This document shows, piece after piece, positions 32,386 through 62,361 of a DNA stretch of 64,000 nt. Each line of letters begins with the position of its first letter. Position 1 is the stretch's first letter. The DNA comes from Bacteroidales bacterium (GTDB taxonomy: Bacteria; Bacteroidota; Bacteroidia; Bacteroidales; WCHB1-69). Position numbers and translations under genes: made by a program. Where the stretch lies: NCBI GenBank assembly GCA_017395245.1, contig JAFPVR010000002.1, positions 27,728-91,727 of the forward strand. Direction: 5' to 3'. The notes beneath the pieces were generated by a model that worked only from the letters and a program-made list of their open reading frames with translations, was not told the DNA's origin and did no database searches.

Positions 32386-32508
32386 ACATTATGATATTTA
32401 AAAATTTCCCTTTCCACTCTTGCCACATTCTCAACCGCAGTTTATAATAAGTGCCTTTACATAAATTCTTGTAGTATTATCAACGTGCATTCAACTCGTC
32501 AGTCTAAT

Positions 32509-32685
32509 TTACACCTTATCATTCACCAACAATTTCTCCCATTTTTTCCCCTCCAAATACACCTTCTTAGCTTCCACTATTCCTAATAGAAAATCTCTTT
32601 GTCGTTCATTGTCAGAATACTCTTTTCCTTTTTCCTTCTCTTGTTGTTCATCTTCTATTGTTGCTATTGTCTGACATGATTTCGT
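32509..32685 (-). pseudogene. Coding relic without start codon
   Basis: An open stretch of 58 codons reads IEDEQQEKEKGKEYSDNERQ and then RDFLLGIVEAKKVYLEGKKW before its stop. It has no ATG and looks like the helical C-terminus of a lost protein. It lies just after the stop of the TIR-TIR gene. It could be the tail of a deleted gene or of an earlier, longer form of the neighbour. The rest of 32386-32508 shows nothing recognisable. Confidence 0.45.
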
Positions 32686-32693
32686 TCAATTGA

Positions 32694-35408: not shown

Positions 35409-35529
35409 GTTTTACTTGTTTTAAATGTATTAAACAATGGAGAATCAACGCTAAACTGTACTTACTGTTAAATGAATAATAATGTTGATTAAACTGCTTC
35501 GAATCATGTATTTCCCATCTTCCAAACAC

Positions 35530-36675: not shown

Positions 36676-36698
36676 CGCCATATTTCTAAAAAATTAAA

Positions 36699-37589: not shown

Positions 37590-37592
37590 AAC

Positions 37593-38771: not shown

Positions 38772-38841
38772 TTTGATTCTCTTTTTTTGTGAAAAAATCG
38801 ATTAAGTGTCACATTAAACATTTTCGCTGTCCACCAGCAGT

Positions 38842-39891: not shown

Positions 39892-39894
39892 AAG

Positions 39895-41520: not shown

Positions 41521-41643
41521 ATTTTAAAACTTTATTGTTGACCAAGTACTTGTTGCTTGTAAATTTTCACAACTGCTTGACAAAATCTTTTCCACGTCAA
41601 TCATCGCGCTTATACACTTATTCCGAAGCAGCTGCTTTTCACC

Positions 41644-42378
41644 CTATATTGGCAGAACCAGCCTGAATCCCATATCCCAACGAGGACAAGGCGCGGCATC
41701 ATCTCTTGAAGAGACCCTGCAGCATCGTTGTGGATTGCTTGTGAAGCTTCCCCCTCGATAAGCATGATAGCTGTCATTATATTGAGGCAGCACCATTGGA
41801 TTTACTTGATCTTCCGGACTGTACTCTTCTGAATAATCATGACACCACTCCCATACATTGCCATTCATATCATACAAACCTAAAGCATTGGGCTTTTTAC
41901 ATCTCACCATGTGGGTTGTATTATCGCTGTTTCCCTCATGCCACGCAACCTCATCAAAATTGTCACCACCTGAATGCTTATATGGACTATGGTATTTACC
42001 ACCCCGCGCCGCATATTCCCATTCAGCCTCCGTGGGCAACCTGAATTCCATTCCTTTCAGGGCATTTAGCTTTTGAACAAACTCCTGGCAATCGTCCCAA
42101 TGGATATTCGTCACTGGAAAATAGTTCCCTTTGAAATTACTTGGATTATTGCCCATCACAATTTGCCAAATGCGCTGTGTCACAACGGTTTCCCCAATGT
42201 AAAAGCTGTCCAGACTCACACGGTGGACAGGGGTTTCATCTATGTAAGCATCCTGTTCCTGCTCAGGCGTCGCCCCCATGTAAAATGATCCACCTTCAAC
42301 ATAGATCATCTTAAAATAGTCTTTCGAAACGCCGATTAAAAGGTCTTCCATTTTTGAAATATTACTATTAGATAACAT
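41644..42378 (-). CDS. FGE-sulfatase (SUMF1) domain protein
   Basis: Nearly the whole 244-residue protein is an FGE/SUMF1 fold: MIYVEGGSFYMGATPEQE, FYIGETVVTQRIWQIVMG, LPTEAEWEYAARGG, MNGNVWEWCHD and a C-terminal MGFRLVLPI. The active-site cysteine pair is incomplete: YRGGSFTSNPQRCC keeps only the second position. It lacks a signal peptide and so is cytosolic. Loss of catalysis suggests a binding role, like the other two FGE proteins in this island. It is separated from the BACON gene by 123 bases in which I see nothing. Confidence 0.9.
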   Translation of the reverse strand: MLSNSNISKMEDLLIGVSKDYFKMIYVEGGSFYMGATPEQEQDAYIDETPVHRVSLDSFYIGETVVTQRIWQIVMGNNPSNFKGNYFPVTNIHWDDCQEFVQKLNALKGMEFRLPTEAEWEYAARGGKYHSPYKHSGGDNFDEVAWHEGNSDNTTHMVRCKKPNALGLYDMNGNVWEWCHDYSEEYSPEDQVNPMVLPQYNDSYHAYRGGSFTSNPQRCCRVSSRDDAAPCPRWDMGFRLVLPI

Positions 42379-47198: not shown

Positions 47199-48299
47199 TT
47201 AGTTTTCTTTTCCTGACCAATGCCATTCGCCTGTTGAGGTGGAATAGGTGTAAATACTCCTTGTGCCTTCCCAATAAGGTCCACCGGGGTAACTCGCCTG
47301 CCAATCAAGATTCAACCACTGCTTCCCATCATGGTTCTTGATATGAATTTCATCAATAGTATACTGGGGGAATCTCGCTTTGATAATGTCTAAGACATCT
47401 TGTGTATCAAAGTTGGAGATGCACACCTCGGCATACGCATGAGCCTCGTTTGCCCGATAAGCTACAACGACAGAAGCCTCACCTCCAATGGCAATCACAC
47501 AACTGGCCATTAGAACAGCAAAGTCATCACAATCGCCACTCAAAGAGTTGAAAATGCTTTCCGAAGCATAAGCGACATAATCATGTTTTCCCTTTGGATC
47601 ATTGACGTACGACCACTTGTTGTAGCAATAATCAAATATCTCACACACCTGTTTAATGTTAAATACTCCAGATGCTCTACTAGCTAATTGGACTGCAAAA
47701 CTTCTCGTATAAGGACAATCAAAATCACATGCTTCCGCCAACATGTCAACGTTAAGATTCCCGTCAGAATACCAGGTGCTATGCCTACGTTCTTGAGGCA
47801 TTTTATACTCTGGCAATTTGATATCTTCTTTCACGTATTCGATGGGCACAACAGGTGTCGGGGTTGGTGTCACTTCTCTTTCAGCCTCACCCTTGTTAGC
47901 ATAGCTTCTGTATGCCTCCAGACTGTCTGTTAAGTAGGTTTCCTCCACTAATTCGCTGTAACCTTTTTGCAGCAGTGCGGAATTGAGACACCTCTTGTTC
48001 CTTTTTGAGGTCACATAGGCATACACTGTCTTGCCCTTAATCAGATCTTTGTCGGGGTTGAATTTGTTGGACTTGTCAGCTTTGAGGGAAACTTTGGTGT
48101 TTATATACTTTTTCAGTTCTTCTTTTCCTTGTGTGGTGCTGGAGACACCGATCAGTTTCACGGTCGCGCCATTTTTTAGCTCCACGGTGTTTCCGTCAAT
48201 GACCTTGGTGATTTTGTTGGTGTCGAAATCGATGCACAGGATTACGACAATGATTAGTAGAACGGCAAAAATGAGGACGTGTGTAAATTTCAACTTCAT
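47199..48299 (-). CDS. SNase-like plus transglutaminase-like protein
   Basis: A membrane anchor (about residues 5-24) is followed by an SNase-like domain (about 28-140, ITKVIDGNTVELKNGATVKL). A proline linker (VTPTPTPVVP) then leads to a transglutaminase/cysteine-protease fold. The catalytic triad is visible: Cys 257 in GDCDDFAVL, His 287 in EAHAYAEV and Asp in NLDWQ. The SNase part lacks the usual catalytic arginines and may only bind. The protein should sit outside the inner membrane and could cleave or crosslink envelope proteins. It follows the terminator of the six-gene operon. Confidence 0.82.
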   Translation of the reverse strand: MKLKFTHVLIFAVLLIIVVILCIDFDTNKITKVIDGNTVELKNGATVKLIGVSSTTQGKEELKKYINTKVSLKADKSNKFNPDKDLIKGKTVYAYVTSKRNKRCLNSALLQKGYSELVEETYLTDSLEAYRSYANKGEAEREVTPTPTPVVPIEYVKEDIKLPEYKMPQERRHSTWYSDGNLNVDMLAEACDFDCPYTRSFAVQLASRASGVFNIKQVCEIFDYCYNKWSYVNDPKGKHDYVAYASESIFNSLSGDCDDFAVLMASCVIAIGGEASVVVAYRANEAHAYAEVCISNFDTQDVLDIIKARFPQYTIDEIHIKNHDGKQWLNLDWQASYPGGPYWEGTRSIYTYSTSTGEWHWSGKEN

Positions 48300-48324
48300 A
48301 ATGATTTGATTTTAAGATTTTAAA

Positions 48325-48354
48325 GATGGCACTGCGTCAAAGCGCAGTGCCATC
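48325..48354 (-). terminator. Intrinsic terminator of the Hsp70/tubulin/actin operon
   Basis: A perfect 12-bp stem (GATGGCACTGCG/CGCAGTGCCATC) with a 6-base loop is followed on the minus strand by TTTAAAATCTT. It begins 15 bases after the stop codon of the actin-like gene. It separates the six-gene unit from the downstream island genes. Confidence 0.85.
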
Positions 48355-48368
48355 CAATTAATATCCAA

Positions 48369-51300
48369 TTAATTATTACGCATGAAATGCGCAGAGATTT
48401 TTTCCATAATAAGGGAAATGTACTGGAAGAAAACGGATTCCATCAGAATGTCGGACGGCTTCAACAACATGTCTTTGCCAACAGAGGGCACAAACGATTT
48501 CACTTTGTCCTGTGGTATCACCATTTCGGCATCGTCAACCATTTCATAAAACAGCGAAATGAACTGACAGACATTGTCTTCCACCTGCTGTTTCATATCG
48601 TCACTCACGTTGACTTGGGCACCGCCGCTTTTGGAATTGGCGTCGTAACAATTGTTTTGGTCGCCTAGCATGACCACTTGTGCGATTCTGTCATTGCCGT
48701 CAAATGCAAGCCCGGGAATTCCCATCTTGGAATTCTTGTATCCTTTCAATGCACCAAGTGCCGTGGTGGATTTCGGGTTGGCAGGTTTCACAATTCGCAG
48801 GTCTTCCGCAAAAGCCGTTCCATAAACGTTTTTGAAAATGTCTCGAATATAATCTTCGTGTTCTGAATACAGCCCGAAGAGCTTGGAACCATTTCCAGTC
48901 AGGTATATGACCGAAGGACACTCCTCTGGTGATTTCATTTTGCACAATTGGGCGATATGATAAATCAGGGAGGTGTTATGGAACTTCAACATAAAGTTCG
49001 GGTTAGAGTTATGGAAGATGTTTTCGAAATCATGCGATGCTTGAGAAAAGCCATAGTTCATGATGGCGCTGATGGAATCTGTGGGGTTGATTTTTTCTGC
49101 ACCTGACAACGGGGATTGTAGTTCCAGAACCTTTTTGCATTTGTCTCGTGAGACTTGCTGCCGCATAATGTTAATCCCTTGTTGAGCCTGTTCGTTATGG
49201 TTCAGATCGCCATCCAAGTATAGTGCGTTGCCTGCGAAACTGAAGGAAGTTGCAAAACGAGGTACATTCTCCTTGAAACCAAATACATCGGTTGAACCAC
49301 CTCCAACATCAATAAGAATGGTTAATTCAGAAACAGAGCTAAGATCGTCAATGCACTCATAGATAGGTGCGCGTGACTCGTTTGTGAATAGGACATGATT
49401 TTCCGGACTCACTTTAAAGCAACGTTCGTACTCCTCTTCCCAGATTCGCTTGTGTTCGTCTGTCAATTGATAATAAAACGAAAGTGGATAGGTCCAGATC
49501 AACTTGGTGTTTTGGGGGTTATAACCCTGACAAATGAGGTTGGAGCGGAAAATGAAGAGAAGTTCTTTGACGAAAGAGGTAAAGGCTTGTTCCCTGGCCT
49601 CATCCGTTTCGAAATCTCTGCCGTGTTTAACTCTAAACCACTTGAACTTGCCCTCGGTAACGCTGTCGTAGTTGCCTTTTCGTTTTCCGATTTCATAATA
49701 GGCAAATGGTATGGCGCTGTTGTACAACGGAATCTTCTCTTCCGTTCCGTTTGGTGTCATGCCATTGACATAAGTCTGGTTAATAACTGACGGTATTGGG
49801 AAATAATATCCTTTATCCTGCCTGTCGTTGGATTTTGGCAGGATTCTGGACGGAATGAACTCGCATAACTGTGTGGCCAACCATTTGTCGGTAAAAGAGC
49901 CGTCCTCTTCGCGAAGATACAAATCGTCACGATCTTTGTCGATGGCATCCACTTTGTCCTGAGGTGTACAGGTCTTATGCATGAACATCAACTCGCTCCA
50001 ATTTCCGTCGTCGTGTACGGTAGATATTTCTTTTGGTTTGCTGAAGTCTTTCGCGTTGGCAGCATTACGCACCATATAGGCGACATAGGTGTTTGAGGTG
50101 CCCAAATCCACGGCGATAATCACCTCGTCGTTTTTCATTGTGATGACGTTTTTACCATTGTTTTCGCCTTCAACACCTTGATTAACGTCAACTTTCCGTA
50201 ATTTAGGGACAATCAAGGCGGATCCTTTATCGGATGTGATTTCAGCGACATCCAAAGCTTTACGACCAGCTTCGATATGGTAATACCAACAGTTGCCTGG
50301 CATAGTGGCATTAGCCATGATGGTCTGGTTGCTCTTCACCTCACTGTTGTCTTTGTCAGTTGAAAACTCACCCAGTTCCAACGGGTCTTTGTCAGTGCCA
50401 ATGTGGAAAAAGTGTAGCTTGGAACGATTATTGCTGTTGGGATCAAAATGATGGTAGAAAAGAACTTTGTAAATATTGTCAAAAAGAGTTGTTTTTACAA
50501 ATGGGTAGATGCCGAATGCGAACGGACTCATTTCTTTGCCATTGATGACGACGCCTTGCGGATAGGCGACCGGGCCTTTGTCGTCTTCCATCACATATTC
50601 CCGACGAATGACGGATGTGCCTCCGCCCACAAGATCCACTTTCATCTTGACGAGGAATGTGTTTTTTGTTTTTCTGACAATGGTTATCCGCTCGGTGATT
50701 TTGGTGAGGTCGCCAAACAACGAAGTGAGATGTTGCAATCCTGAACTCTTGACCGGGATAAGGCAGCGGTCTTTCATCTGTTTGTCAGTGACCTCGTCCA
50801 AGAACGGCACGGAGACGTAGTTGTCGTTGATATCGTAAGGGAGCACAAACAAAGCGTCCGACAGGATATCGTTGGGCCCTAACCAGTAAGTCACCTCTCC
50901 ATTAAAGTAGCGATTCTTCACCTCAATTCCATACTCCTCTTCAGAGATGGTCAAGTCTGCAGGCTGAACCAGGTAGAGGAGATATTTTAGGTAGGAGCAG
51001 TCGATATTGTCTGGACGGATAAACAAGGGCTGGTTCTCGTGGGTGCCGATTTGCTGGAGTGTTGGGGTTCCGACATTGAATTTTCGGTACTCATCACGTT
51101 GGAAGAATGAGGTGTTGTCTAACGCCTGCTTTTCGGCCTGTGTCAGACTTTGCTCCACCACAGCAAAAAGGTTCTCAAAGATGTAGCATAGCCTTGTGCC
51201 GCGCTCATTAAGAAGCAAATACATGAATTCTCTGAAATCAGTGGAGCGACCTTTCATGTCACGCCAGTCGTTGGGATCGTCGGTGAAGAGGTTGCGGGCA

Positions 51301-51965
51301 TTGCCGGTTGCGTCCTTGATGGAAATACCGGCCTCCTTCAAATTACAATCCGCCTTGGAGAAAAAACCTGTGAAAGGCGAAGAGGAAGCGAAGGTTTTGC
51401 CTTTGTATTTGAACAGATACAACGAGGTGAAGTCAAACACGTACTCGTCATTGCCCAGTCTGCCGTGCATGCGCTTTCTGATTGTGCGCAAATATTGGTT
51501 CCGGTAGAGCTGCAAGGTCTCCAAATAATTGTTAAGACGGCTATTGTTGTTTGGCCCCGGACTCTCTAACTTGATTTTCTTGATGGAGATCCCCTTCTCT
51601 TGCAAGTCAATGTCGTCTGAATGGTAGAGCATTTCAAACACATCCAAGCAGTGTGACAAGGCGCGAGAGTAATCGGGGGAGATGTCTTGCGGGGTTACAT
51701 CCCTCTTCTTGGTCAAAAGGCTCCGGCCGTTTCGAAGCTCCATGAATGCGATGTCGGTCACGTGCATCCGCGCGTAGGGTGACGGAATCGACGTGATGCG
51801 GTCGGTTTTGGTTGTGTTGCAGATGACTGCGTTGATTCTTTCCTTGCTATAGGGATTGTATCTCAGCGCATTTGCGTCAAAATCCACTTTGAAATCGGTT
51901 AATCCAGCGTCGTGGGTTGCGACCTCTTCAGCCTTCAATCCGAAAATATATTTTTTCTTTGCCAT
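48369..51965 (-). CDS. Very large actin/Hsp70-fold ATPase with novel N-terminal half
   Basis: The C-terminal half (about residues 610-1198) has actin/Hsp70-fold motifs: phosphate 1 IIAVDLGTSNTYVAYM (615-630), phosphate 2 LTILIDVGGGSTDVFGF (881-897) and an adenosine motif VIYLTGNGSKLFGLY near 1015. Residues 1-600 (AEEVATHDAGLTDFKVDFD, FAFGIYPFVKTTLFDN) match nothing I know. There is no membrane segment. It is cotranscribed with a tubulin-like protein, an unusual pairing of two cytoskeleton-type NTPases. It may be a filament former or an Hsp70-like switch; SrfB-type virulence proteins are a distant alternative. Confidence 0.85.
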   Translation of the reverse strand: MAKKKYIFGLKAEEVATHDAGLTDFKVDFDANALRYNPYSKERINAVICNTTKTDRITSIPSPYARMHVTDIAFMELRNGRSLLTKKRDVTPQDISPDYSRALSHCLDVFEMLYHSDDIDLQEKGISIKKIKLESPGPNNNSRLNNYLETLQLYRNQYLRTIRKRMHGRLGNDEYVFDFTSLYLFKYKGKTFASSSPFTGFFSKADCNLKEAGISIKDATGNARNLFTDDPNDWRDMKGRSTDFREFMYLLLNERGTRLCYIFENLFAVVEQSLTQAEKQALDNTSFFQRDEYRKFNVGTPTLQQIGTHENQPLFIRPDNIDCSYLKYLLYLVQPADLTISEEEYGIEVKNRYFNGEVTYWLGPNDILSDALFVLPYDINDNYVSVPFLDEVTDKQMKDRCLIPVKSSGLQHLTSLFGDLTKITERITIVRKTKNTFLVKMKVDLVGGGTSVIRREYVMEDDKGPVAYPQGVVINGKEMSPFAFGIYPFVKTTLFDNIYKVLFYHHFDPNSNNRSKLHFFHIGTDKDPLELGEFSTDKDNSEVKSNQTIMANATMPGNCWYYHIEAGRKALDVAEITSDKGSALIVPKLRKVDVNQGVEGENNGKNVITMKNDEVIIAVDLGTSNTYVAYMVRNAANAKDFSKPKEISTVHDDGNWSELMFMHKTCTPQDKVDAIDKDRDDLYLREEDGSFTDKWLATQLCEFIPSRILPKSNDRQDKGYYFPIPSVINQTYVNGMTPNGTEEKIPLYNSAIPFAYYEIGKRKGNYDSVTEGKFKWFRVKHGRDFETDEAREQAFTSFVKELLFIFRSNLICQGYNPQNTKLIWTYPLSFYYQLTDEHKRIWEEEYERCFKVSPENHVLFTNESRAPIYECIDDLSSVSELTILIDVGGGSTDVFGFKENVPRFATSFSFAGNALYLDGDLNHNEQAQQGINIMRQQVSRDKCKKVLELQSPLSGAEKINPTDSISAIMNYGFSQASHDFENIFHNSNPNFMLKFHNTSLIYHIAQLCKMKSPEECPSVIYLTGNGSKLFGLYSEHEDYIRDIFKNVYGTAFAEDLRIVKPANPKSTTALGALKGYKNSKMGIPGLAFDGNDRIAQVVMLGDQNNCYDANSKSGGAQVNVSDDMKQQVEDNVCQFISLFYEMVDDAEMVIPQDKVKSFVPSVGKDMLLKPSDILMESVFFQYISLIMEKISAHFMRNN

Positions 51966-51998
51966 ATTTTCAATAATTAACAGATTAATAATAAGATT

Positions 51999-53588
51999 TT
52001 ATATATTACATTTGTTGCCTATGATGGAGTCCAGTGCTTTTGAGATGATTAACAGCAAATAAGGTAGTTTCTTGTAGTCCTCGACGGTGGTGTCTGAACC
52101 GGGCAAAACTTTTTGTTTGACCAAGGTGTCATAGGCATCAATCAGAGCGTCTTTTATTTCAGACGGAACAGGTTCGGGGTGCGGTTGTCTGGGCCATCTG
52201 CCCACTTGTTTAACGTTGGCAATACCCCATCCGTGCTCATGGTCGGTGTAGAACATCTGCGTGAGCATATCTTCATTGACAGCTCCGGATTTAACAAAAG
52301 ACATCTTTCTCTTGGACGGCACTCGGTTGTTCGGATTGGTGAGATTCCGGGTCCATTCATCCCAAGCGCGGAACAAGTAATTCAATCCCCATGCGTAGGG
52401 GAATTGACGGAGCTTTTGTTCGTCCCTTGTGACAACTGATTCACGCATGGATTCGTTGAAGCCGATGTTGTGCACGAAACGGCGATTCTCTTTGATGTCA
52501 TCTTGCAACAAATCACTTTCTGTGAATAGCCATTTCATCATCTGGAACCGTGCGAAGGCTTTTCGGAGGTCCGAATTGGGAATGTCCGATAAGTTGGATG
52601 ACAGGGTGTCTTGTGTGTCGTCGTCAGAAAAAGACCATACTGGCCGTTTGTATATCACCTTGTCTCGGAAATCCACTTTTGAGAAATCAATGGCACACAG
52701 GGCTGCCATCACCTCTATCGGATGCGTAGCGTTGTTTTGGGAGTCACCGTAGATGTGATGGGCGTAAACAGCCTTGCAGCCGCTATCACCCACATAATAT
52801 TGCACGTCCACTTCCTGCATATAGTCGTCATAGTACATCAGGGCCGCACGGGTTTTCACGTCAAACATATCGGAAATGACATCATAGTCGCTTCCGCTGG
52901 CATATTGCTGGGTGTTAGCGGTGGTGAAATATGGCAAAAGCGACACGACACCGATTTTCGGGCATTGGTTGCCTTTGCTCTTGAACTTGTTCACGATGAG
53001 CGGGATGCCGGCTGCGCCTGTGCCTCCGAAGAGGGAACCGATAATCACCACGCCATCCATGTTGTCGATTTCCACATGTTTACTCTCGTAGCGGTCGTCG
53101 TGCAGAGCGATGGCATTCAGGACCACAGACCCGATGTTGGGATTGCCGATGAAACCGCCGTCGAGGGGCATCTGCAGATCTTTGTCGGTGAATAGCAGGT
53201 CTCGCTCCTCGATAATGTTGCTTTGTTCGTCGGTCAGATTGCCAATAACCATGTTCAGGTTGCCGATATTGCCGCCATCTGAGTCAAGGTAAATGGGCTC
53301 TTCAATCTCAGTTTTGAAGAAGGAGGGCCATTTGTCGTTGTCATGACCCAATGCGGGCTCATAGATGGCGTTGGCTCCTATCTCGTTTTGGCTGGCAGTT
53401 CTTTGTTGGCGATAATACTTGATCAGGTTCTTGCACTCTTTCAGGGAATGGGATTCCGAATCGTTGTCAATGAATATGGGTAACACCGATGCGGCATTCA
53501 CCGTCATGCCGGAGGTGAGTGCCATGATAAAGGAGGCCATTACGCGCTCGCCGCTGCCTCCAATGGCCATTACTACTAATCTGTTCAT
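51999..53588 (-). CDS. Tubulin/FtsZ-like GTPase (Tubulin_2-like family)
   Basis: This 529-residue protein starts with MNRLVVMAIGGSGERV, the nucleotide-binding N-terminal loop. It has the tubulin signature as GSLFGGTGAAGIP (residues 184-196, compare GGGTGTG) and a following SLLPYF strand. No membrane segment or C-terminal FtsZ tail is seen. It resembles the bacterial FtsZ-like families reported beside vWA proteins in predicted membrane-remodelling clusters. A membrane vWA gene is two genes upstream here, and the actin-like gene is 33 bases downstream. GTP binding is likely; polymerisation is inferred. Confidence 0.85.
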   Translation of the reverse strand: MNRLVVMAIGGSGERVMASFIMALTSGMTVNAASVLPIFIDNDSESHSLKECKNLIKYYRQQRTASQNEIGANAIYEPALGHDNDKWPSFFKTEIEEPIYLDSDGGNIGNLNMVIGNLTDEQSNIIEERDLLFTDKDLQMPLDGGFIGNPNIGSVVLNAIALHDDRYESKHVEIDNMDGVVIIGSLFGGTGAAGIPLIVNKFKSKGNQCPKIGVVSLLPYFTTANTQQYASGSDYDVISDMFDVKTRAALMYYDDYMQEVDVQYYVGDSGCKAVYAHHIYGDSQNNATHPIEVMAALCAIDFSKVDFRDKVIYKRPVWSFSDDDTQDTLSSNLSDIPNSDLRKAFARFQMMKWLFTESDLLQDDIKENRRFVHNIGFNESMRESVVTRDEQKLRQFPYAWGLNYLFRAWDEWTRNLTNPNNRVPSKRKMSFVKSGAVNEDMLTQMFYTDHEHGWGIANVKQVGRWPRQPHPEPVPSEIKDALIDAYDTLVKQKVLPGSDTTVEDYKKLPYLLLIISKALDSIIGNKCNI

Positions 53589-53603
53589 AGCAAGTTGGTT
53601 TGA

Positions 53604-54053
53604 TTATTTGTTAAAAATTATACTTATCCAATCTATTGTGTTCGCCTTTGACTTCCCTTTAACCAGCAGGGACCAGACCTCAAACAAAATGAAATAATAG
53701 GCGACGTCTATTGCGCATATTTTCCACATGTTGCCGGAAGAGAAGCAGCTGCTCCAGTCACAGAAAAGGAATACGACCACGAAATTGAGTACCAGCATGG
53801 TGATCAGCCCCAACAAAGAGGTGATCACATAGTTTTTCTTGGTGGCGTTGGACGAAGACTGGGCGATGCCGTAGTAGAAGATGACTGCTGTGAGCAGCGA
53901 CACGATGACAAGGACGAGGAACAGCCATGAGAAACCATATCCGCCGTTTGCATCAGACAAATACGTTTCAAATGTGTTGACCCCATCTTGTTCTTCCAGG
54001 GTGTTGGTTACCCATTGGAAGAAAATCTTGGCAAGACGATAAATTTTTTCCAT
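53604..54053 (-). CDS. Four-TM membrane protein
   Basis: This 149-residue protein has hydrophobic helices at about 38-58, 72-92, 97-110 and 117-132 (FSWLFLVLVIVSLLTAVIFYY is the first). It has no recognised domain. It is encoded between the vWA and tubulin-like genes with gaps of 31 and 15 bases, so it belongs to the operon. It may anchor the tubulin-like protein to the membrane. Confidence 0.75.
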   Translation of the reverse strand: MEKIYRLAKIFFQWVTNTLEEQDGVNTFETYLSDANGGYGFSWLFLVLVIVSLLTAVIFYYGIAQSSSNATKKNYVITSLLGLITMLVLNFVVVFLFCDWSSCFSSGNMWKICAIDVAYYFILFEVWSLLVKGKSKANTIDWISIIFNK

Positions 54054-54084
54054 AATAAGGTTAATTTAGGTGAATAATTATTAT

Positions 54085-55410
54085 TTATTTTTTACTGACT
54101 ATAAAATCGAAACGGGCCACCTCTTCGGCGGGTTTATCCTCGCTTCCAAAATAGGCTTTGTTGATGTTTTTCATCAAGGCGTCGAACCCCCAAGTCTTTT
54201 TCTCGATGCCCTTAACATTGTCTTGAGTGTCGTCGTCGGTGGAGGCCGTCGAGATCCAGTTTTCTGCTGTTGTCAAGGTGATATAGGGGGTGTGCTTGCT
54301 TTTCCATTCTCCGTAAGGACGTAACTTGACTGTGTAAGTGTAAGTGCCTTCTCCGTTATAGGATTCCGGTGCTGTTACATTGGTGATTATGCTTTGGTCG
54401 AAATCCAGTTTCAAGTTTTCAACCTTGACATATTTGGGAACACTGAAAGCGTTGCACGTCAGCGTTAGTTCTGCGACAGCGTTTTTTTCAGCATCCTCGG
54501 CCCAGATTATTCCGGCTTCCTTAGGATCCTCTCCCACTTTCCAGATAGATTTTTTGTCCACAGCCACTGTGAAGGATTGCGTTTGCAGCTCAGGGATTTT
54601 AAACGACGCATAGATGTTGTCAAATCCGTCGAAGCACTGGTCAGCCATGATTTTGCGGAGATTCTTCTCCGTGCCGCACAATAACACATAAAAAGGCCTG
54701 TCTTTCATCAGGGTATCTTTGTATGTACATGGTGTAATGTTCTCCATGTAGTTGCAATAGTATTTTCCGTTGTAGTCGCTGTAGTACTGCAGGATGACCA
54801 CGTGCATGCCTCCTTTTTGTAAATCCGAGAACACATCGTACGCCAATCCTGCCAAAGCACCAAGCTGATGTTTATTATAATCAGGTGTCTCTTTTAGAAG
54901 TTTTTGCTTCCCGTACGACAACACCATGTCAGAAACGAGAATGTTTACTGTGGAGTCTGTGACGCTGCTCAAGTTGTTGCGGAACATTTCATGCAACAGC
55001 GTGACATTTTGATTGAATATAGAATGATTTTCCATCGCTTTTAGAAAATCTGCCTTGCCATAAGCCTTGCTTCCGCAATAGCTGGTAGTTGAAATATCGT
55101 ATTTTTTTTCCAAGTTTGTAAGGCCGTTTGAAACAGTCGGAATCATCTTGGCTGTGAAGTTCTTGAATGCTTCTTGGTTGGCAGGATTCTTCCCGTCCAC
55201 AAAACCGCGCATACTGCCGGAGAAGTCGATGTACAGCGAAGCGCCTTTGATGTTACAGTCGATGCTCTCCTCGTTGACGGGACATTTCATGGAGAAATTA
55301 CCGCCTTTAGGCTTGTCATGGTTGATGATCCTGTTGATAACGGCAATCAGTGCAATCAGCCCGAGCAGAATAAGCAGATAGATCTTGATGTTGATTTTAC
55401 TTTTACTCAT
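54085..55410 (-). CDS. Membrane-anchored vWA-domain protein
   Basis: A single membrane helix (residues 9-28) is followed by a vWA domain. Its metal motif is SLYIDFSGSMRGF (Asp 62, Ser 64, Ser 66), with VNILVSDMVLS as a second metal contact. The C-terminal third (about 320-441) is beta-rich (TYTYTVKLRPYGEWKSK, PYITLTTAENW). The topology places most of the protein outside the cytoplasm. vWA domains bind protein ligands through a metal ion. It sits between the coiled-coil and four-TM genes and may sense an envelope ligand. Confidence 0.85.
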   Translation of the reverse strand: MSKSKINIKIYLLILLGLIALIAVINRIINHDKPKGGNFSMKCPVNEESIDCNIKGASLYIDFSGSMRGFVDGKNPANQEAFKNFTAKMIPTVSNGLTNLEKKYDISTTSYCGSKAYGKADFLKAMENHSIFNQNVTLLHEMFRNNLSSVTDSTVNILVSDMVLSYGKQKLLKETPDYNKHQLGALAGLAYDVFSDLQKGGMHVVILQYYSDYNGKYYCNYMENITPCTYKDTLMKDRPFYVLLCGTEKNLRKIMADQCFDGFDNIYASFKIPELQTQSFTVAVDKKSIWKVGEDPKEAGIIWAEDAEKNAVAELTLTCNAFSVPKYVKVENLKLDFDQSIITNVTAPESYNGEGTYTYTVKLRPYGEWKSKHTPYITLTTAENWISTASTDDDTQDNVKGIEKKTWGFDALMKNINKAYFGSEDKPAEEVARFDFIVSKK

Positions 55411-55448
55411 AATTAGGTTGTTTTAATTGTTGTTTATTGAATTTCTGT

Positions 55449-58403
55449 TTACTTTTGGACAAAGATCTTGATGCGGCTGTCGGGTTTCCTGCCGCCTTTT
55501 ATCCACACTTTGCAGTTCTCAAGGCTTACGATTTCCCCGGACGCAAACCCATCGACATCAACAGGGTTGGCAGTTACATCGGAAAACGTATTTCTATCCT
55601 TTATATGCACTGTGGCAATTTCAACATCTAATGCCTCGGCATCTTTTTCCAATTGTGTGCTAAAGGTCTTGAATTCTTTCACATCATTTTCTTTTAGTTT
55701 CTGGTCGAAGTAGGGAAGACCGATGAGTGACTCGTTGAAGACTACCACGGCGTTGAAATACTTCTCCAAGTAGGCGTTGAACAGGTATTTCTTCAGTGAG
55801 GCTTCGGGGTTGTTCTTGTCCAACTTGGTCACCTGACTGTCGTTGAATACCAGCTGGCCTCGGGCCATCATGTCCACTTCGGACGCCAATGCCGTCTTTA
55901 TCCCGCCCATGTTCTGGTTGTATTTCGCTTGGGCACGGTAGAGGTAGTAGGGGTCGTCCATCTTGTCAGCCATCAAGCTATTCGCCTTGCTTTCGATTGC
56001 CGCCACGGTTTTGAAGAGCTGCTGGAGCTTCTTGGCATACGCTTGTGCAAATTCCACGCGGGTGAAATTGTCGGTATAGAACTTTTGATCAAGTTTGAGC
56101 CCGTCAATCACTTTGTCTTTCTTCTCTTCGGCTTCTTTGACTTTCTTAGCGGTGTTCTCTTTTTCCATTTGGAGGGAGGTTTTGAGCTCGTTAATCACTT
56201 TGTCTTTCTTCTCTTCGGCTTCTTTGACTTTCTTAGCAGTGTTCTCTTTTTCCGTTTTGAGGGCTGCTTTAAGATCATTAATCACTTCGTCTTTCTTTTC
56301 CTCTGCCTCCTTGACTTTTTGGGCGGTGTTGTATTTTTCCGTTTGGAGGGCGGCTTTAAGACCGTTAATCACTTCGTCTTTCTTCCCTTCCGCCTCTCTG
56401 ACTTTTTCGGCAAGATCTGTCGTCGCTTGCGTTCTCGAATTTTCGATTGCTGTTCGGTGAGCCTCATTCGTCTTTTTGATCCATTGTTCAACTTCGGATT
56501 GCAGGGAGGTGAATTCGGCCTTGAGCTCTTCCAACTGGCTCTTTGTGATGCCGGTGGTGTTTAGCGGAGCGGGTTCGGATTTGGCTTCGGATTTGGGTTT
56601 TGTTTCTGTTTCTGTTCCCGTTTCTACTTCTACTGTTTCTGCTTCAGCCGTTTCCTCAGAACTTGTCTCGGCAATCGTCACGGTTTCTGGTTCAGGTTGT
56701 GCCTCAGTGACGGACGACAGGAGATTGTCCAATTCCGTCGCGAAACGATTGAACAGGGTAGGCACGGTCGAGTCATCTTCGGGATTGGCGGTTTGAGCCT
56801 GAGCTTGGGTTTGAGTTTGAGCTTGAGTTTCTGACAGAGTCTGGGGCTGAGTCTGGGAGACCTGATCTTCGGGATCTTCAGGGACGGGAAAAACCTCTTT
56901 TAAGGCGTCTAAGTCATTTTTCAATTGTTCATAACTGTTAATGTCGTCTGATGCCACCTCCTTCATGCTTTGTGGGAGGGTGTCATCATTGTTCAATTTT
57001 GACAACTCGTTTTCTATCTCCTCTATGGACGCAATGAATATAGGCAGTTCTTTTTTTACTTCCGCTTCTATAAGTTTTACTAGTCGTTGGCTTTCTGAGA
57101 CATCATTAAGGGCTTCCTTTAGGTCTTGCTTGTTCCAGTTTTTGTAAATTTGATCTAAATTATAGCGTAAATCTCCAAACAACGTGGACGAGACCTCATT
57201 TTTGTTCCCAAACAGTTTGATACGCAGCTGATTTATTTGATGTTTTAATGTTTGGTTTTTTTCTAGGATAACCGCAGCAATTCCCTCTTCTTTTGACGGT
57301 TTAGCTTCCCCTTTTTGTGGTTTATTGGCTTTTGAGTTTCCTTTCTTTTTAGCTGCTCCTGTTTTGTTATTTGTAGAAGTTTGATATGAGTTCGGGGGTG
57401 TTGGTATGGCTTGGTCAATTTTGTCAAATTTATCAATCAGTTCTTGTCTTGTTCTTTCAAAATAGGCTGAACATAACTTCAAGTCTTCTTCCAGTTTACT
57501 ATTAAGGCTCTCGTCTTGACTGTCATGTTCCTCGTCTTGACTATCCTTTTTCAGTCTTTCGATACTCTCTTTTATCTCACCCAGTTTAGCGAGCATCGGA
57601 TTGTCCGGATTTTGGTCTTTATTGCGATGAGACAACCACCAGACAATGGCCAAAACGATGAGAACTGCCACAATAAGCCACACCCACCAGAACTTGGACA
57701 TAAACTGTGCGAAGCCTTTTTTTCCGGCAGTCGTGGCGTCGGATTCCGTTTGGAAATCCGTAGGCCATGTCATGTAGAGGGGCGTTCCGTTCAGCGGGGA
57801 TATGCGGAACAACACGCAGGTGTCGTTCAAACTGTCAACGCCTAAATCCTCAAAAGAGAACCTCTTTTCTTCGCCAGGCTTCATCGTGGCACAAATGACA
57901 AAACCCTTTTTCAGGTTGATAATCAGGCACGAGTCAAAGGGAACACTGTCCGCAATGGCGATTTTGAGGTGTTGTTGCCCGTCTGCTGTGTCAAGTTGCA
58001 GACTCTTGAATATCGATTTGGAGAGCGGAACCTGCGTCTTGATTGTGTCGTGTTTGAAAAGGAATACAGTGTCAACTTCTTTTAATACTCCTTGTCTATC
58101 GAACGAACTGTCCAAAATAGAGATTGGCAGGTAGACGGAGCCTTCCCATACAAAAGCGTCAACCCCTTTTATGGGAGCGGGAGCGAAGCATTCATTCTCG
58201 TACAAGGTGAAACCCTTGGGCATGGTCCAGCTAACGGTGTCAAACCGCTTTCCGTCGGCGTTTGGTTTAAAGCAATATGTGAATTTCGGTTCTTTGACGG
58301 TGCTTTTTACGCGCCAGACCGTGTCTGATTTGGAAGCTTCCGCATTTTGGAATGCGATTGACAAAATGAATAATGCCAAAAACAGTCGGAAAATATTTTT
58401 CAT
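55449..58403 (-). CDS. Exported/membrane coiled-coil protein with 29-residue repeats
   Basis: A signal peptide (residues 1-23) precedes a beta-rich outer domain (about 25-225), a membrane helix (237-257) and a long coiled-coil interior. The interior has a glutamate/threonine-rich linker (about 500-630) and 3.6 copies of a 29-residue repeat, KVKEAEEKKDEVIN-x-LKxxLxxEKENTAK, at 56094-56405. The last 180 residues are less repetitive. This gives an outside sensor joined to a long cytosolic helix. It resembles the topology of the Hsp70-like protein upstream. Confidence 0.85.
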   Translation of the reverse strand: MKNIFRLFLALFILSIAFQNAEASKSDTVWRVKSTVKEPKFTYCFKPNADGKRFDTVSWTMPKGFTLYENECFAPAPIKGVDAFVWEGSVYLPISILDSSFDRQGVLKEVDTVFLFKHDTIKTQVPLSKSIFKSLQLDTADGQQHLKIAIADSVPFDSCLIINLKKGFVICATMKPGEEKRFSFEDLGVDSLNDTCVLFRISPLNGTPLYMTWPTDFQTESDATTAGKKGFAQFMSKFWWVWLIVAVLIVLAIVWWLSHRNKDQNPDNPMLAKLGEIKESIERLKKDSQDEEHDSQDESLNSKLEEDLKLCSAYFERTRQELIDKFDKIDQAIPTPPNSYQTSTNNKTGAAKKKGNSKANKPQKGEAKPSKEEGIAAVILEKNQTLKHQINQLRIKLFGNKNEVSSTLFGDLRYNLDQIYKNWNKQDLKEALNDVSESQRLVKLIEAEVKKELPIFIASIEEIENELSKLNNDDTLPQSMKEVASDDINSYEQLKNDLDALKEVFPVPEDPEDQVSQTQPQTLSETQAQTQTQAQAQTANPEDDSTVPTLFNRFATELDNLLSSVTEAQPEPETVTIAETSSEETAEAETVEVETGTETETKPKSEAKSEPAPLNTTGITKSQLEELKAEFTSLQSEVEQWIKKTNEAHRTAIENSRTQATTDLAEKVREAEGKKDEVINGLKAALQTEKYNTAQKVKEAEEKKDEVINDLKAALKTEKENTAKKVKEAEEKKDKVINELKTSLQMEKENTAKKVKEAEEKKDKVIDGLKLDQKFYTDNFTRVEFAQAYAKKLQQLFKTVAAIESKANSLMADKMDDPYYLYRAQAKYNQNMGGIKTALASEVDMMARGQLVFNDSQVTKLDKNNPEASLKKYLFNAYLEKYFNAVVVFNESLIGLPYFDQKLKENDVKEFKTFSTQLEKDAEALDVEIATVHIKDRNTFSDVTANPVDVDGFASGEIVSLENCKVWIKGGRKPDSRIKIFVQK
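56094..56405. repeat. 87-bp in-frame tandem repeat
   Basis: Inside the coiled-coil gene, an 87-bp unit is repeated 3.6 times with high nucleotide identity. It encodes 29-residue helical units starting KV(K/R)EAE(E/G)KKD. Copy number is expected to vary, changing the length of the coiled coil. Confidence 0.9.
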
Positions 58404-58415
58404 ACTAATTCTATT

Positions 58416-61400
58416 TTATTTTAAACGGGTTTTGGTTTTTGAGGTGTCGATTGTACTTGTCTTATGTGTCGGGGTGAAACTGGTCTCCTCCTCTTCATAA
58501 TCATTGGTGTTGATGGTGGCGAATTCGAAGGCTGCGCTGTTCTCGTCTTTGATTTCGTTTTGCATTTCGTGATCCATCCGCCAGGCACGGGCACTCTCTT
58601 TTGTGATGGGCTCATCGAAGCTGCTTACATAGATTCTGTAGTCGTAGTTGCCTTTGTCATCCACTTCGAACTCGATTCTGTCGATAAAGGTTTTGATTTG
58701 GGAGCCTTTCACCTCATCCAATAGGATTTTCTTGTGTTGGATGTTGTTCTTAATAATCTCTTCAGTGTTGGCACCCATCATTTGGAGGAATTTCACGTTG
58801 ATCATCTCCGGGTCGAACAGGTCTTTGCCGTGGACAACAGGGGCGATAATACGGCCATTCTCAAAGGCGGTTCCGTTCTCAATTAGGGCATGGTAGCATT
58901 TTTCGGTATTTTTGCTGTCTTCGAATCCGAAAGAGGAGGTCACGTAGTTGTGTTGGAGCAGGATTTTGCGGCTGTACATGGCATACCAGCAAGCGCCCTC
59001 CGCCACGGCAGTTTTCACCTTTTGGTCGTCGAACACAACAATGCCGGCATCGTTCTTTTTCATAAAGCCGTCCCACTGCTCCACTCTGTGCCCGAAGAAG
59101 GCTTTCATAATGGTCTTGCTCACTCCGGGGTAAAGAACTGAACGACCGCTCAAAATCAGCTCTATGGTTCGGTGCGAAGGGAAGCGTTTGGCATGCAACA
59201 GCTCATTAATAGCGTCAGTGATGTGTCGGAACACATACTCGTTCATAATGTTGTGTGATTTCTTTTCATTTGCTACAAAAATCCGATCATCCTCAGTTTT
59301 GTCGGGAATGGAAACCCCAAATTCACTGAATTGTGTCCCTAAAAAGCCGTAGAAATCTTCGAACGAGGTTGTTACATTGTCAGCGGGGTTGGGAACGTTA
59401 TTTGTTTTGTCAATCCAGTCCAGTTTGATTTTCCTGGCCATCGATATCAAAGCATTTTTGTGCTTTTTCTGGTGTTCGCGCAATAGCGTCTCTTGCTCGC
59501 TTTCTGGTTTTCCCTGTGCATTTAGATTCTCCAACAGGGCTTTACGTATGGAGGGGATTGCATAGAAAAGCTGGATGAGGGCGTAGTCAATGTCATCGCC
59601 GCCCACATAATAACCGACTTTGGCCAAAGAGTCCAGCTCAATTCGCTGTATGTTGCCATTGGCACCCATCACTACATTGACATTGAAAGCGGTGAGGTTG
59701 ATGGTGGCACCGCCCATGTCCAACACCACAAACACCCGGTTCTGCTTGTCGACAATCTGTTGCAGATTTTGGCGCAGGTAGGTCATCATCACGCCTTCTG
59801 ACTCATAAAGGTAGTGTACTTCCTTGAACTTGCCCAATCGCTTGACGGAGTCCACCATGTCCTGCACTTTGTTGCGCGTGTAGTTGTTGGGGACAGCCAC
59901 CACCGCGCGCTGTGGGTCAAATCTACCGTATTCATCGCTGAATTGTCCGGTGATATTTTCATCTTTTGTGCTTTGGTAGTGCGCCTCAAGTTGGTTGTAC
60001 AACCCCTTGGCTAACAGGTGGGCGAGATCCTGCCCTTCGATAGTCTTTACGGTACCGTCGCTCCTCTTGATATTTTGTGGGGACTTGTATCCTAAAAACT
60101 TCTTGATGGACTGGAACTTGTTCTTGCCGGCAGTTTCCGCGCCTTCGAATTGGAAATCCAAGCCTTCCTCAAATTCCTCTACGGGAGGTTTGGTTGTGAA
60201 GGCCCTGCTGGTATCCGGGATGGCGATCACGGAGGGAAAGATGGAAGAAGTTTTCGTCCTTCCGCCGCTCGTTGTTTCTTTATATTGGCGGTTTACCAGG
60301 TTGATGTCGTTGGTGTCAAGCCAACTGCCGGTCACGCCGTATGCGATAGAGGAACCTGTGGTGCCCTCGTCGAAGGCCACCCAGATGTTCGGGTTGCGGA
60401 GCTTCGGTCGCACGATGAACTTGTACTCCCGTTCCACTTCGCCGTCGCCAATGTAAACCAGCGACTTTCCGTCGCGCCGATAGACGCGCACTTTGAGTTT
60501 GACGTCCAGTACGTTGTCAATGTCGAAATTGATGGCATTGGATTCCCCGTCCACGTATGCTTCCACATTAACACGGGCTTCGAACACGCTCTTTTTTGAC
60601 GTGTCGAACACCTCTTCCAGTGCGTATTCGGTGTTCAGCTTCTTGCGTGTGCCGTCCGGGTTCGGTAGCTGCGGGCGGAAAGTGAACAGTTCGTTGCCAT
60701 CCAGATCTTCCACCTGGTATTTAATCACGTACGTCTGTTTTTGCGACAAGGCTCGCTTGGGCATGGTCGCTGTGATGTCGAAAGAGATGATGCGCCGCCG
60801 GTCTTTCTCGTCTTCCATGTACCAGCAGTCGTGGTTGGTTTCTTCACAATTCTTCACGCACATGTATCGCGTGTTGGAGATGGGGTTAACGTCCACTTTC
60901 AGTTCGGGTTTGGCACGTTTTCCCCTGAAAATATAGAGCCATATCAAGAATCCGATGAGCAGTGCGGCGGTGAGGATTGAGAGAATGATGGTCAGCATTT
61001 TTCTTTCTGCAGGTTCGGGAGCCAGAATAGGAATTTGCGGCTCGTCCTGACTGAAAACATACGGTATGATTGTATTTCCGTCTTTGTCCTGTATATTGGT
61101 GTAGAGCACAAAGGAGAATAAGTAACCCTCATCTTTCTTGACATTGTTTAATTTTATTGTTCGTTTCGGGATTGTCAAAAATTGTCCATGGTAGTATTTT
61201 TCAATTTCATTAACATCGTCTATTGATGACTTTTGCAAAATGTTCCCCGCATAGTCCTTGATTAACATGTCGATACGATAGACTTTTATCCTGTCGTCTT
61301 TAGTGAAGAGAATATTCACAGGATTAACTTCAAATTCGGAACTCCCCCATTTCTTCTGTTGAACAGAGAAGTTCTCAACTTTAAAACTATTTCCGTCTAG

Positions 61401-62291
61401 AGCATTTGGCAAAACAACCCCTCCTTTGATTTGTGGGTTGTGCTCATATCTTGTGTTAGCAGAGAAATTGATATGGATTTTATCATTTCTATAATCAAAA
61501 GGATCGAAAAGTTTATTTAGGTAATTGTTGAAGGATACGTAGTAGTGTTTTGAATTCGGTTTGTCAATGAGATCCTTCATGTTTTTTTCATCCCCATCTT
61601 TTAGGAGGGCCTGCCCACCTGACTTGAAGTCAGATACAATCAATACGACATATTCTGTGGCGGGCTTGTCTCCTTGTATATGGTTGAGAATAAGAGGATA
61701 AACATAGTAAACAAATCCAGTGTGTATTTCGTTGCTTGATAAGCCGCCATAGAAAAAGGGCTTGACATTAGATTGGAGAAACTCGGATATTGACTGATTG
61801 TTGTCTTTGCTAAAAGTCGAAGAGGGGTGAATAGTACAAGAGTCAATCATTCTGTGTAGTACTGCGTTGCTAACCACCCCACCAATAGCAAGATCTCTAA
61901 TCCTTTTGAAATCCCCTGTTGCTGGATTTCCGGAGCCACGCATGCCTGTCACAAATATTGACAACTTGTCTTGCTCTGGATCAAAAAACACTACTTTGTC
62001 TTGATCAGGGAATCTTGACGAAGGATCTATCCCAAGACTATTCAAGTCATTTCCAAGAAGTAGGGCTTCCAAAGCGCTATAGATACGACTCATCTTGTTT
62101 TGATCATTCTCATTTGGTAATTTCTGATCCACACAGATAATTATGTGCTTCCTATAATAATCTTGTGCCTGCGTATATGTTACATTCAATAGGATGAACG
62201 CCATCAATACAAATGATTTTTTCAAAATCGTCAACATGCACGATTGCAGCCTGTTCTGCTTAGATGAAAACAATGATAGATGTCTCTTCAT
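58416..62291 (-). CDS. Membrane-spanning Hsp70-like protein with periplasmic vWA-like domain
   Basis: This 1291-residue protein begins with a signal sequence (to about residue 43). A periplasmic region (45-430) looks vWA-like (YYRKHIIICVDQKLPNE, ATEYVVLIVSDFKSGG). A membrane helix spans 432-455. A beta-rich region (460-630) and an Hsp70/actin-fold ATPase (about 636-1230) are cytosolic. ATPase motifs are WVAFDEGTTGSSIAYG (637-652), FVVLDMGGATINLTAF (854-869) and LSGRSVLYPG. Known Hsp70s are not membrane spanning, so this looks like a receptor whose inside end is a chaperone-like switch. First gene of the operon. Confidence 0.87.
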   Translation of the reverse strand: MKRHLSLFSSKQNRLQSCMLTILKKSFVLMAFILLNVTYTQAQDYYRKHIIICVDQKLPNENDQNKMSRIYSALEALLLGNDLNSLGIDPSSRFPDQDKVVFFDPEQDKLSIFVTGMRGSGNPATGDFKRIRDLAIGGVVSNAVLHRMIDSCTIHPSSTFSKDNNQSISEFLQSNVKPFFYGGLSSNEIHTGFVYYVYPLILNHIQGDKPATEYVVLIVSDFKSGGQALLKDGDEKNMKDLIDKPNSKHYYVSFNNYLNKLFDPFDYRNDKIHINFSANTRYEHNPQIKGGVVLPNALDGNSFKVENFSVQQKKWGSSEFEVNPVNILFTKDDRIKVYRIDMLIKDYAGNILQKSSIDDVNEIEKYYHGQFLTIPKRTIKLNNVKKDEGYLFSFVLYTNIQDKDGNTIIPYVFSQDEPQIPILAPEPAERKMLTIILSILTAALLIGFLIWLYIFRGKRAKPELKVDVNPISNTRYMCVKNCEETNHDCWYMEDEKDRRRIISFDITATMPKRALSQKQTYVIKYQVEDLDGNELFTFRPQLPNPDGTRKKLNTEYALEEVFDTSKKSVFEARVNVEAYVDGESNAINFDIDNVLDVKLKVRVYRRDGKSLVYIGDGEVEREYKFIVRPKLRNPNIWVAFDEGTTGSSIAYGVTGSWLDTNDINLVNRQYKETTSGGRTKTSSIFPSVIAIPDTSRAFTTKPPVEEFEEGLDFQFEGAETAGKNKFQSIKKFLGYKSPQNIKRSDGTVKTIEGQDLAHLLAKGLYNQLEAHYQSTKDENITGQFSDEYGRFDPQRAVVAVPNNYTRNKVQDMVDSVKRLGKFKEVHYLYESEGVMMTYLRQNLQQIVDKQNRVFVVLDMGGATINLTAFNVNVVMGANGNIQRIELDSLAKVGYYVGGDDIDYALIQLFYAIPSIRKALLENLNAQGKPESEQETLLREHQKKHKNALISMARKIKLDWIDKTNNVPNPADNVTTSFEDFYGFLGTQFSEFGVSIPDKTEDDRIFVANEKKSHNIMNEYVFRHITDAINELLHAKRFPSHRTIELILSGRSVLYPGVSKTIMKAFFGHRVEQWDGFMKKNDAGIVVFDDQKVKTAVAEGACWYAMYSRKILLQHNYVTSSFGFEDSKNTEKCYHALIENGTAFENGRIIAPVVHGKDLFDPEMINVKFLQMMGANTEEIIKNNIQHKKILLDEVKGSQIKTFIDRIEFEVDDKGNYDYRIYVSSFDEPITKESARAWRMDHEMQNEIKDENSAAFEFATINTNDYEEEETSFTPTHKTSTIDTSKTKTRLK

Positions 62292-62352
62292 ACACTTTTC
62301 TGTTTATTACTGTTTGTTTTTTTACGCTTTAATATAATTTGTTGTATCTCAG

Positions 62353-62361
62353 GCAAATATA
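62353..62361 (-). promoter_or_regulatory. Bacteroidota -7 promoter element for the Hsp70/tubulin/actin operon
   Basis: The minus strand reads TATATTTGC, a perfect TA-nn-TTTGC match, about 60 bases before the ATG at 62291. No other strong match lies in the 347-base spacer. Confidence 0.65.

What the first reader, a model, noticed from the sequence alone, without database searches (positions are those of the whole stretch)
48325..62361. Six-gene operon joining a membrane Hsp70, vWA, coiled coil, tubulin-like and actin-like proteins
Between one -7 promoter element and one strong terminator lie six minus-strand genes: membrane-spanning Hsp70-like, membrane coiled-coil, membrane vWA, four-TM, tubulin/FtsZ-like and a 1198-residue actin/Hsp70-like ATPase. 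Tubulin-like proteins with vWA partners were proposed as membrane-remodelling systems (Makarova and Koonin 2010, from memory). I know of no described system with both actin-like and tubulin-like NTPases plus a transmembrane Hsp70. Two exported sensor-like ectodomains and two cytosolic NTPases suggest envelope-to-cytoplasm signalling or membrane remodelling.
Basis: partly seen in the sequence, partly recalled or inferred. Interest (0 to 1): 0.95.

Follow-up and report, generated by a model that had tools for sequence, protein, structure and literature searches.

The report
Membrane operon pairing tubulin with actin
A bacterial operon pairs a tubulin-like with an actin-like enzyme beside membrane proteins; the same pair recurs in other bacteria, often next to genes resembling an ion-driven motor, which suggests an undescribed envelope machine.

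The parts
58416..62291 (-). P0006, 1291 aa: signal peptide, ectodomain (about aa 44-430, fold not identified), one TM (about aa 434-455), cytosolic Hsp70-type ATPase domain (about aa 635-1110; DEGTTGS at 641, DMGGATIN at 858)
55449..58403 (-). P0005, 984 aa: signal peptide, ectodomain of about 210 aa, one TM near aa 232-260, long cytosolic coiled coil (topology by hydropathy, coiled coil by eye)
54085..55410 (-). P0004, 441 aa: N-terminal TM anchor and vWA-like domain with DFSGSM (aa 62-67); core gene 1
   Evidence: vWA not confirmed
53604..54053 (-). P0003, 149 aa, 3-4 TM membrane protein; core gene 2
51999..53588 (-). P0002, 529 aa, FtsZ/tubulin-fold GTPase (about aa 1-340) with a family-specific C-terminal region; core gene 3
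53007..53036 (-). codons 185-194 of P0002: tubulin signature (T4) loop SLFGGTGAAG
48369..51965 (-). P0001, 1198 aa; core gene 4: N-terminal half of unassigned fold, C-terminal actin/MreB/Hsp70 fold
48687..50132 (-). codons 612-1093 of P0001: actin-fold ATPase (phosphate motifs DLGTSNT at 620 and DVGGGSTD at 886, E863, K775-W776)
48324..48355 (-). terminator-like hairpin after P0001
62354..62361 (-). -7 type box TATATTTG upstream of P0006 (weak)
47199..48299 (-). P0007, 366 aa, TM plus transglutaminase-like domain; beyond the hairpin, but also downstream of the actin gene in the closest relative L069 (there split into three ORFs), so perhaps an associated gene

Best explanation
The window holds a rare variant of a recurrent tubulin-actin envelope system. 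Shown: tubulin-fold and actin-fold genes stand side by side, behind a 3-TM gene and (in the nearer relatives) a vWA-like gene, and membrane-spanning coiled-coil-type proteins accompany them. Many relatives add a MotA/ZorA-like and a MotB/ZorB-like gene; the window's clade has a transmembrane Hsp70-type ATPase instead. Inferred: the tubulin-like GTPase and actin-like ATPase bind each other and assemble on the inner face of the membrane, held by the 3-TM and coiled-coil proteins. The periplasmic vWA-like part and ectodomains sense or hold the cell wall or outer membrane. A membrane energy module (ion-driven motor in many relatives, Hsp70 ATP cycle here) transmits the envelope signal and drives or resets the assembly. 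Likeliest use: reaction to envelope attack or damage, for example by phage, in the manner of Zorya.
For: Folds. Adjacency: 78 of 80 named loci, the two misses being contig ends; actin in the fetched stretch of 25 of 28 unnamed loci (three of them duplicates of named ones); 12 of 13 newly fetched loci when started from the actin. One 1562-aa tubulin::actin fusion. TUB and ACT distances correlate at r 0.94 over 59 loci, 0 of 2000 permutations. MotA_ExbB over its cut-off and ZorB E 1.9e-12 in Leyella stercorea; motor pair in 51 of 80 loci; membrane Asp motif in 60 of 63 ZorB-like proteins. Hsp70 clade 100/97, sister (96/95) to a clade with two other one-TM proteins. Pair on cyanobacterial plasmids.
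Against: No experiment; no complex was modelled. One ACT locus (L160) has no TUB, and L033 has TUB without ACT. The motor pair is less common in the broader sets: ZorB-like in 12 of 28 and 5 of 13 loci, some contigs being short; an LGLMGT-like motif is in 47 of 66 MotA-like proteins. The vWA profile finds its gene in 20 of 28 and 7 of 13 loci only. A correlation of distances also arises from plain co-inheritance. vWA is by motif only, and most relatives have E, not D, first (D-first pattern in 5 of 99). Defence lacks island support: 1 of 16 genomes within 20 kb of an N6_Mtase gene, 0 of 16 within 20 kb of an integrase (no background was computed). The window itself has no motor genes.
Confidence: 0.5

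Rival explanations
1. Membrane-remodelling or cell-surface machine rather than defence: the tubulin-actin pair bends or positions membrane for vesicle formation, secretion or surface structures, as Makarova and Koonin proposed for FtsZl1/vWA/OmpA operons.
For: Shared vWA-like partner and weak OmpA matches (below cut-off) of the ZorB-like proteins; membrane proteins around the pair in the gene maps; no defence-island signal.
Against: Sporadic distribution (13 of 395 phylum genomes) is unlike a core envelope function; interchangeable neighbours look like an accessory system.
Confidence: 0.3
2. A conflict system of the kind of Kaur et al. 2020 (GTPase-centred, tubulin or HSP70 themes) in which the cytosolic NTPases form a threshold assembly that triggers effectors; the TIR, Macro-TIR and FGE genes downstream in the window would be those effectors.
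For: TIR, Macro, PARG and FGE genes on the same strand at 30877-42378; Kaur et al. report tubulin+vWA and HSP70 themes near membranes; a P-loop NTPase-like ORF lies near the related Hsp70 operon L042 (my reading, no model run).
Against: No DO-GTPase or GAP1 recognised in the window; the TIR/FGE genes do not travel with the core (single-sequence queries hit 0 to 2 of 111 other loci each).
Confidence: 0.25
3. An FtsA-FtsZ-like pair: the actin-like protein is simply the membrane tether of a tubulin-like filament for an accessory division or segregation role.
Against: MreB stands 1.5 above FtsA in Z (13.0 against 11.5; Hsp70 at 12.3 is tied with both); an FtsA-type C-terminal helix was not looked for; the motor or Hsp70 modules are unexplained.
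Confidence: 0.15

Closest known systems
FtsZl1 (Pfam Tubulin_2) / vWA / OmpA operons, Makarova and Koonin 2010 (PMC2875224; I read parts 1-2 of 5 and search passages)
   Same: Tubulin-like GTPase next to a vWA protein and membrane proteins; OmpA-like partner in some genomes; patchy distribution.
   Different: P0002 is shorter and has no Tubulin_2 match up to E 10. Hsp70 and MotA do not occur in the main text, and 'actin' only in general remarks in the passages shown. The window's genome has a separate true Tubulin_2 gene. The paper's supplementary gene tables were not available, so some of these operons may be in them unrecognised.
GAP1-N2 GTPase-centric conflict systems, Kaur et al. 2020 (PMC7159879; sections 27-29 and passages read)
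   Same: Tubulin with two vWA genes in one theme, HSP70 in another; membrane association.
   Different: Their tubulin and HSP70 themes do not overlap and go with DO-GTPase and GAP1; here tubulin, actin-like and Hsp70-like genes share one operon and no DO-GTPase was recognised.
Zorya (ZorAB), Mariano et al. 2025 (PMC11890865; start of abstract in a listing and three passages seen)
   Same: In many relatives a MotA-type protein with a long tail plus a ZorB-like subunit lie in the operon.
   Different: No ZorC, ZorD or ZorE match among the ten proteins given; the cytosolic partners are tubulin and actin folds; the window lacks the ZorAB-like genes.
FtsA-FtsZ (recalled)
   Same: Actin-fold and tubulin-fold partners encoded side by side.
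   Different: P0001 is 1198 aa, nearest to MreB in fold, and the pair comes with exported and multi-TM proteins.

Membership tests
FtsZ/tubulin superfamily (P0002) | GTPase-domain fold | tested here: met
FtsZ/tubulin superfamily (P0002) | T4 signature GGTG | tested here: met
   G188-G191 invariant in 69 sequences
FtsZ/tubulin superfamily (P0002) | Pfam Tubulin curated cut-off | tested here: not met
   24.7 bits against 33; 60 of 69 members match at E up to 0.01, cut-off not reported per member
FtsZ/tubulin superfamily (P0002) | Polymerisation with GTP | not testable with these tools
   needs purified protein
FtsZl1 (Tubulin_2) | Tubulin_2 curated cut-off | tested here: not met
   no Tubulin_2 match for P0002 up to E 10; L020 24.6 bits against 27; 54 of 69 members match at E up to 0.01, cut-off not reported per member
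FtsZl1 (Tubulin_2) | Extended coiled coil and helical C-terminal domain | tested here: inconclusive
   P0002 is 529 aa against 804-812 aa for the FtsZl1-looking proteins in L042/L041; its C-terminal part is helical in the model; no coiled-coil predictor was run
Actin/MreB/Hsp70 superfamily (P0001) | Actin fold | tested here: met
Actin/MreB/Hsp70 superfamily (P0001) | Phosphate 1 and 2 motifs | tested here: met
   D620, G622, D886, G888, G889 invariant in 59
SrfB | Match to PF07520 over the cut-off | tested here: not met
   the own genome's SrfB is at another place (1.2e-220); the place of P0001 is not in the list at E up to 1
Hsp70 (P0006) | Hsp70 nucleotide-binding domain | tested here: met
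   profile of 5 rows finds Kar2/BiP (best E 1.1e-4) and DnaK, positions 609-1026 over the various hits
Hsp70 (P0006) | Substrate-binding domain | not tested
   -
vWA (P0004) | MIDAS DxSxS | tested here: met
   DFSGS at 62-66; S64 and S66 nearly invariant in 20, but most relatives have E first
vWA (P0004) | Profile match to a vWA family | tested here: not met
   Pfam: 1 of 20 members, E 0.12; PDB: none
Zorya | ZorA and ZorB in the window | tested here: not met
   no ZorA/ZorB-like profile hit in the window; only a match of P0005's coiled-coil part to ZorA3, E 0.034
Zorya | ZorB in the relatives' operons | tested here: met
   E 1.9e-12, 4.8e-12 and 5.2e-13 for the three given
GAP1-N2 GTPase systems | DO-GTPase and GAP1 | tested here: inconclusive
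   no GTPase or GAP1 match for the nine window proteins scanned; no specific model tried

The most novel reading that the evidence does not exclude
A categorically new bacterial envelope machine: a tubulin-actin copolymer under the membrane, wired to the periplasm, with interchangeable power modules - a ZorAB-type ion-driven motor in many lineages, a transmembrane Hsp70 in the window's clade.
Probability: 0.35. Interest if true: 0.95.

Novelty: new variant of a known kind. Interest (0 to 1): 0.82.

Why it matters
Tubulin-fold and actin-fold NTPases are mostly studied apart in bacteria, FtsA-FtsZ being the classic pair (recalled). Here the two are encoded side by side in Bacteroidota, one Leptospiraceae genome and cyanobacterial plasmids, fused once, and in 51 of the 80 nearest loci followed by an ion-motor-like pair. 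This gives a concrete, testable core for a cytoskeleton-envelope machine. It also points to a large actin-fold ATPase family (members of 1031-1302 aa in the maps) for which 13 members scanned had no Pfam match better than E 2e-4. It names a cultured type strain, Leyella stercorea DSM 18206, in which to test it.

Tried and rejected
SrfB for P0001: rejected (2 of 13 family members had weak SrfB matches, best E 0.0054). The P0006 ectodomain as a second vWA domain: no support (hhalign probability 0.3%; PDB nothing below E 0.6). Homology of the P0005 ectodomain with the membrane proteins of other variants: hhalign probability 32% on 36 residues around the TM with the flavobacterial group, 10% with the mainstream one, so architecture only. 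TUB profile against the FtsZl1-looking proteins of L041/L042: only the GGTG loop aligns, probability 2.2%, and that profile has two rows. P0001 profile against P0006 profile: 2%, ending at the phosphate-2 loop. TIR, FGE, Macro and PARG genes as part of the system: they do not travel with it. Defence island and integrase neighbourhood: negative (16 of the 27 genomes with a match were given, chosen mostly for better assemblies). Phages: no match to a mainstream TUB. Plasmids: 6 records match that TUB, of which I looked at 3; the mainstream ACT matches one. Literature searches gave no description of the pairing. Passages of three further papers (CoCoNuTs; FtsZ/tubulin evolution; MotAB evolution) did not describe it either. 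No structure was predicted for P0003-P0006.
Full report
OBSERVATION. Six minus-strand ORFs without internal stops fill 48369-62291: P0006 (1291 aa), P0005 (984), P0004 (441), P0003 (149), P0002 (529) and P0001 (1198). Gaps are 12 to 38 bases. A 13-pair hairpin at 48324-48355 (-27.4 kcal/mol, z -5.2) follows P0001, though its T-tract is poor and the terminator scan did not list it. The -7 type box at 62354-62361 exists, but such boxes are common by chance (53 found, 37 expected). Pfam, NCBIfam and PADLOC recognise almost nothing in the six: for P0002 a Tubulin match below cut-off (24.7 bits against 33), for P0001 an FtsA match below cut-off.

THE CONSERVED UNIT. P0002 has relatives in 15 of 197 related genomes, own included, and its profile in 13 of 395 genomes of the phylum sample, own included. 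Of these 80 loci, 78 have the actin-like gene on the same strand. My script counted 75 directly downstream within 1500 bases and flagged three (L078, L079, L082) whose stop-to-stop frames overlap; the coordinates put the actin directly downstream in them too. The two misses (L100, L146) end 2 bases after the tubulin frame. The vWA-like gene is upstream in 78; the two misses lie at contig starts. The 80 include near-copies such as L078 and L082. In these 28 the vWA profile finds its gene in 20.

THE TEST FROM THE OTHER SIDE. A search with the actin profile found 21 of 395 class genomes, own included. Eight were already in the tubulin set. Of the 13 newly fetched, 12 have the tubulin directly upstream; the vWA profile finds its gene in 7, the 3-TM profile in 10, the ZorB-like profile in 5. 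L160 has no tubulin within the 6.2 kb held upstream. In G083 the two are one 1562-aa frame. TUB and ACT distances correlate at 0.942 over 59 loci, none of 2000 permutations reaching it. The pair also occurs in a Leptospiraceae genome (L115). On two cyanobacterial plasmids (Gloeothece, Picosynechococcus) TUB, ACT and the vWA-like gene match the profiles, with a three-TM ORF by hydropathy that does not match the 3-TM profile; in Gloeothece the vWA-like gene is on the other strand. No phage record matched.

THE MOTOR. Downstream of the actin in many relatives lie a lipoprotein or TM protein, a 3-TM protein and a short one-TM protein. In Leyella stercorea DSM 18206 the 3-TM protein matches MotA_ExbB (26.8 bits, cut-off 22.9) and the short one matches ZorB at 1.9e-12; Pedobacter gandavensis and the Leptospiraceae copy give ZorB at 4.8e-12 and 5.2e-13. 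The Pedobacter 3-TM protein gave no MotA match, the Leptospiraceae one only E 0.013. My profiles grown from the Leyella proteins find both genes in 51 of 80 loci, the ZorB-like gene in 12 of 28 unnamed loci and 5 of 13 class loci. The 29 of 80 without it include truncated contigs, the two Hsp70 loci, a flavobacterial group of eight with two other one-TM proteins, and some loci with room but no match. A WxSYxDLM-like membrane motif with Asp is in 60 of 63 ZorB-like proteins (two of the rest have a close variant, one lacks its start); an LGLMGT-like motif is in 47 of 66 MotA-like ones.

THE WINDOW'S VARIANT. The window, L069 (Prevotellaceae; 44% identity for TUB in A3) and L070 (Prevotella) form a clade (100/97) that is sister to the flavobacterial group (96/95; L070 and others have long branches). 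They carry the transmembrane Hsp70 and a one-TM, coiled-coil-like protein upstream of the core, and no motor genes were found (L070 is held only 5.2 kb beyond TUB). The Hsp70 is rare: 3 of 197 relatives, 1 of 395 in the phylum sample, own genome included in both. In G083 and G090 it precedes a one-TM protein with a coiled-coil look, two proteins with vWA-like motifs, a 3-TM protein, an 804-812 aa tubulin with the FtsZl1 look and a protease-like protein (names by my reading, no model run). So the Hsp70 module seems to have been combined with two kinds of tubulin system.

MECHANISM. Shown: folds, intact nucleotide motifs, adjacency, one fusion, membrane topology by hydropathy. Inferred: direct TUB-ACT binding; assembly under the membrane; transmission through coiled coils; ion-motor or Hsp70 power; a use in envelope defence or maintenance. 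Against defence: 1 of 16 genomes has an N6_Mtase gene within 20 kb of TUB (G504, 16 kb) and none an integrase within 20 kb (no background computed, some contigs short). In favour: ZorB-like genes, patchy spread, and a TIR, Macro, PARG and FGE gene array beside this copy, which however does not travel with the core.

COMPARISON. Makarova and Koonin 2010 describe FtsZl1 with vWA, GTPase and OmpA partners; 'actin' occurs there only in general remarks in the passages shown, and Hsp70 and MotA do not occur in the main text. Kaur et al. 2020 report tubulin+vWA and HSP70 as non-overlapping themes of GAP1-N2 systems. The Zorya paper has no occurrence of 'tubulin'. Because the 2010 paper's gene tables were not available, I rate the novelty as a new variant of a known kind and keep the bolder reading separate.

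Noticed in passing
window 30877-42378, minus strand: Array of PARG, TIR, TIR-FGE, Macro-TIR, BACON, PrsW-like and FGE genes, a conflict-type neighbourhood; of these only PrsW and BACON also match in the closest relative L069.
   Followed up: partly
window 47199-48299: P0007: TM plus transglutaminase-like domain; its homologue follows the actin gene in L069, split into three ORFs; another lies in L093. The N-terminal part looks nuclease-like to me (untested).
   Followed up: partly
L027 3185-7873: Single frame fusing the tubulin-like and actin-like proteins.
   Followed up: partly
L041 and L042: Operons with transmembrane Hsp70, a one-TM protein, two proteins with vWA-like motifs, a 3-TM protein, an FtsZl1-looking tubulin and a protease-like protein; an unusual Hsp70-tubulin pairing of its own.
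   Followed up: partly
L160 (G690): Actin-like gene of this family without the tubulin in the 6.2 kb upstream.
   Followed up: no
G000:C55 and G000:C90: The same genome holds a true Tubulin_2 gene and a true SrfB gene, apart from this operon.
   Followed up: no
L078 against L082: A contig labelled Oscillibacter carries a nearly identical Bacteroidales operon, probably a binning error.
   Followed up: no
L020 11204-11716, L119 11228-11770: A retropepsin-like aspartyl protease gene follows the ZorB-like gene in these two loci.
   Followed up: no
window 20522-21655: Transposase (DUF772) gene, so the wider region may be mobile.
   Followed up: no
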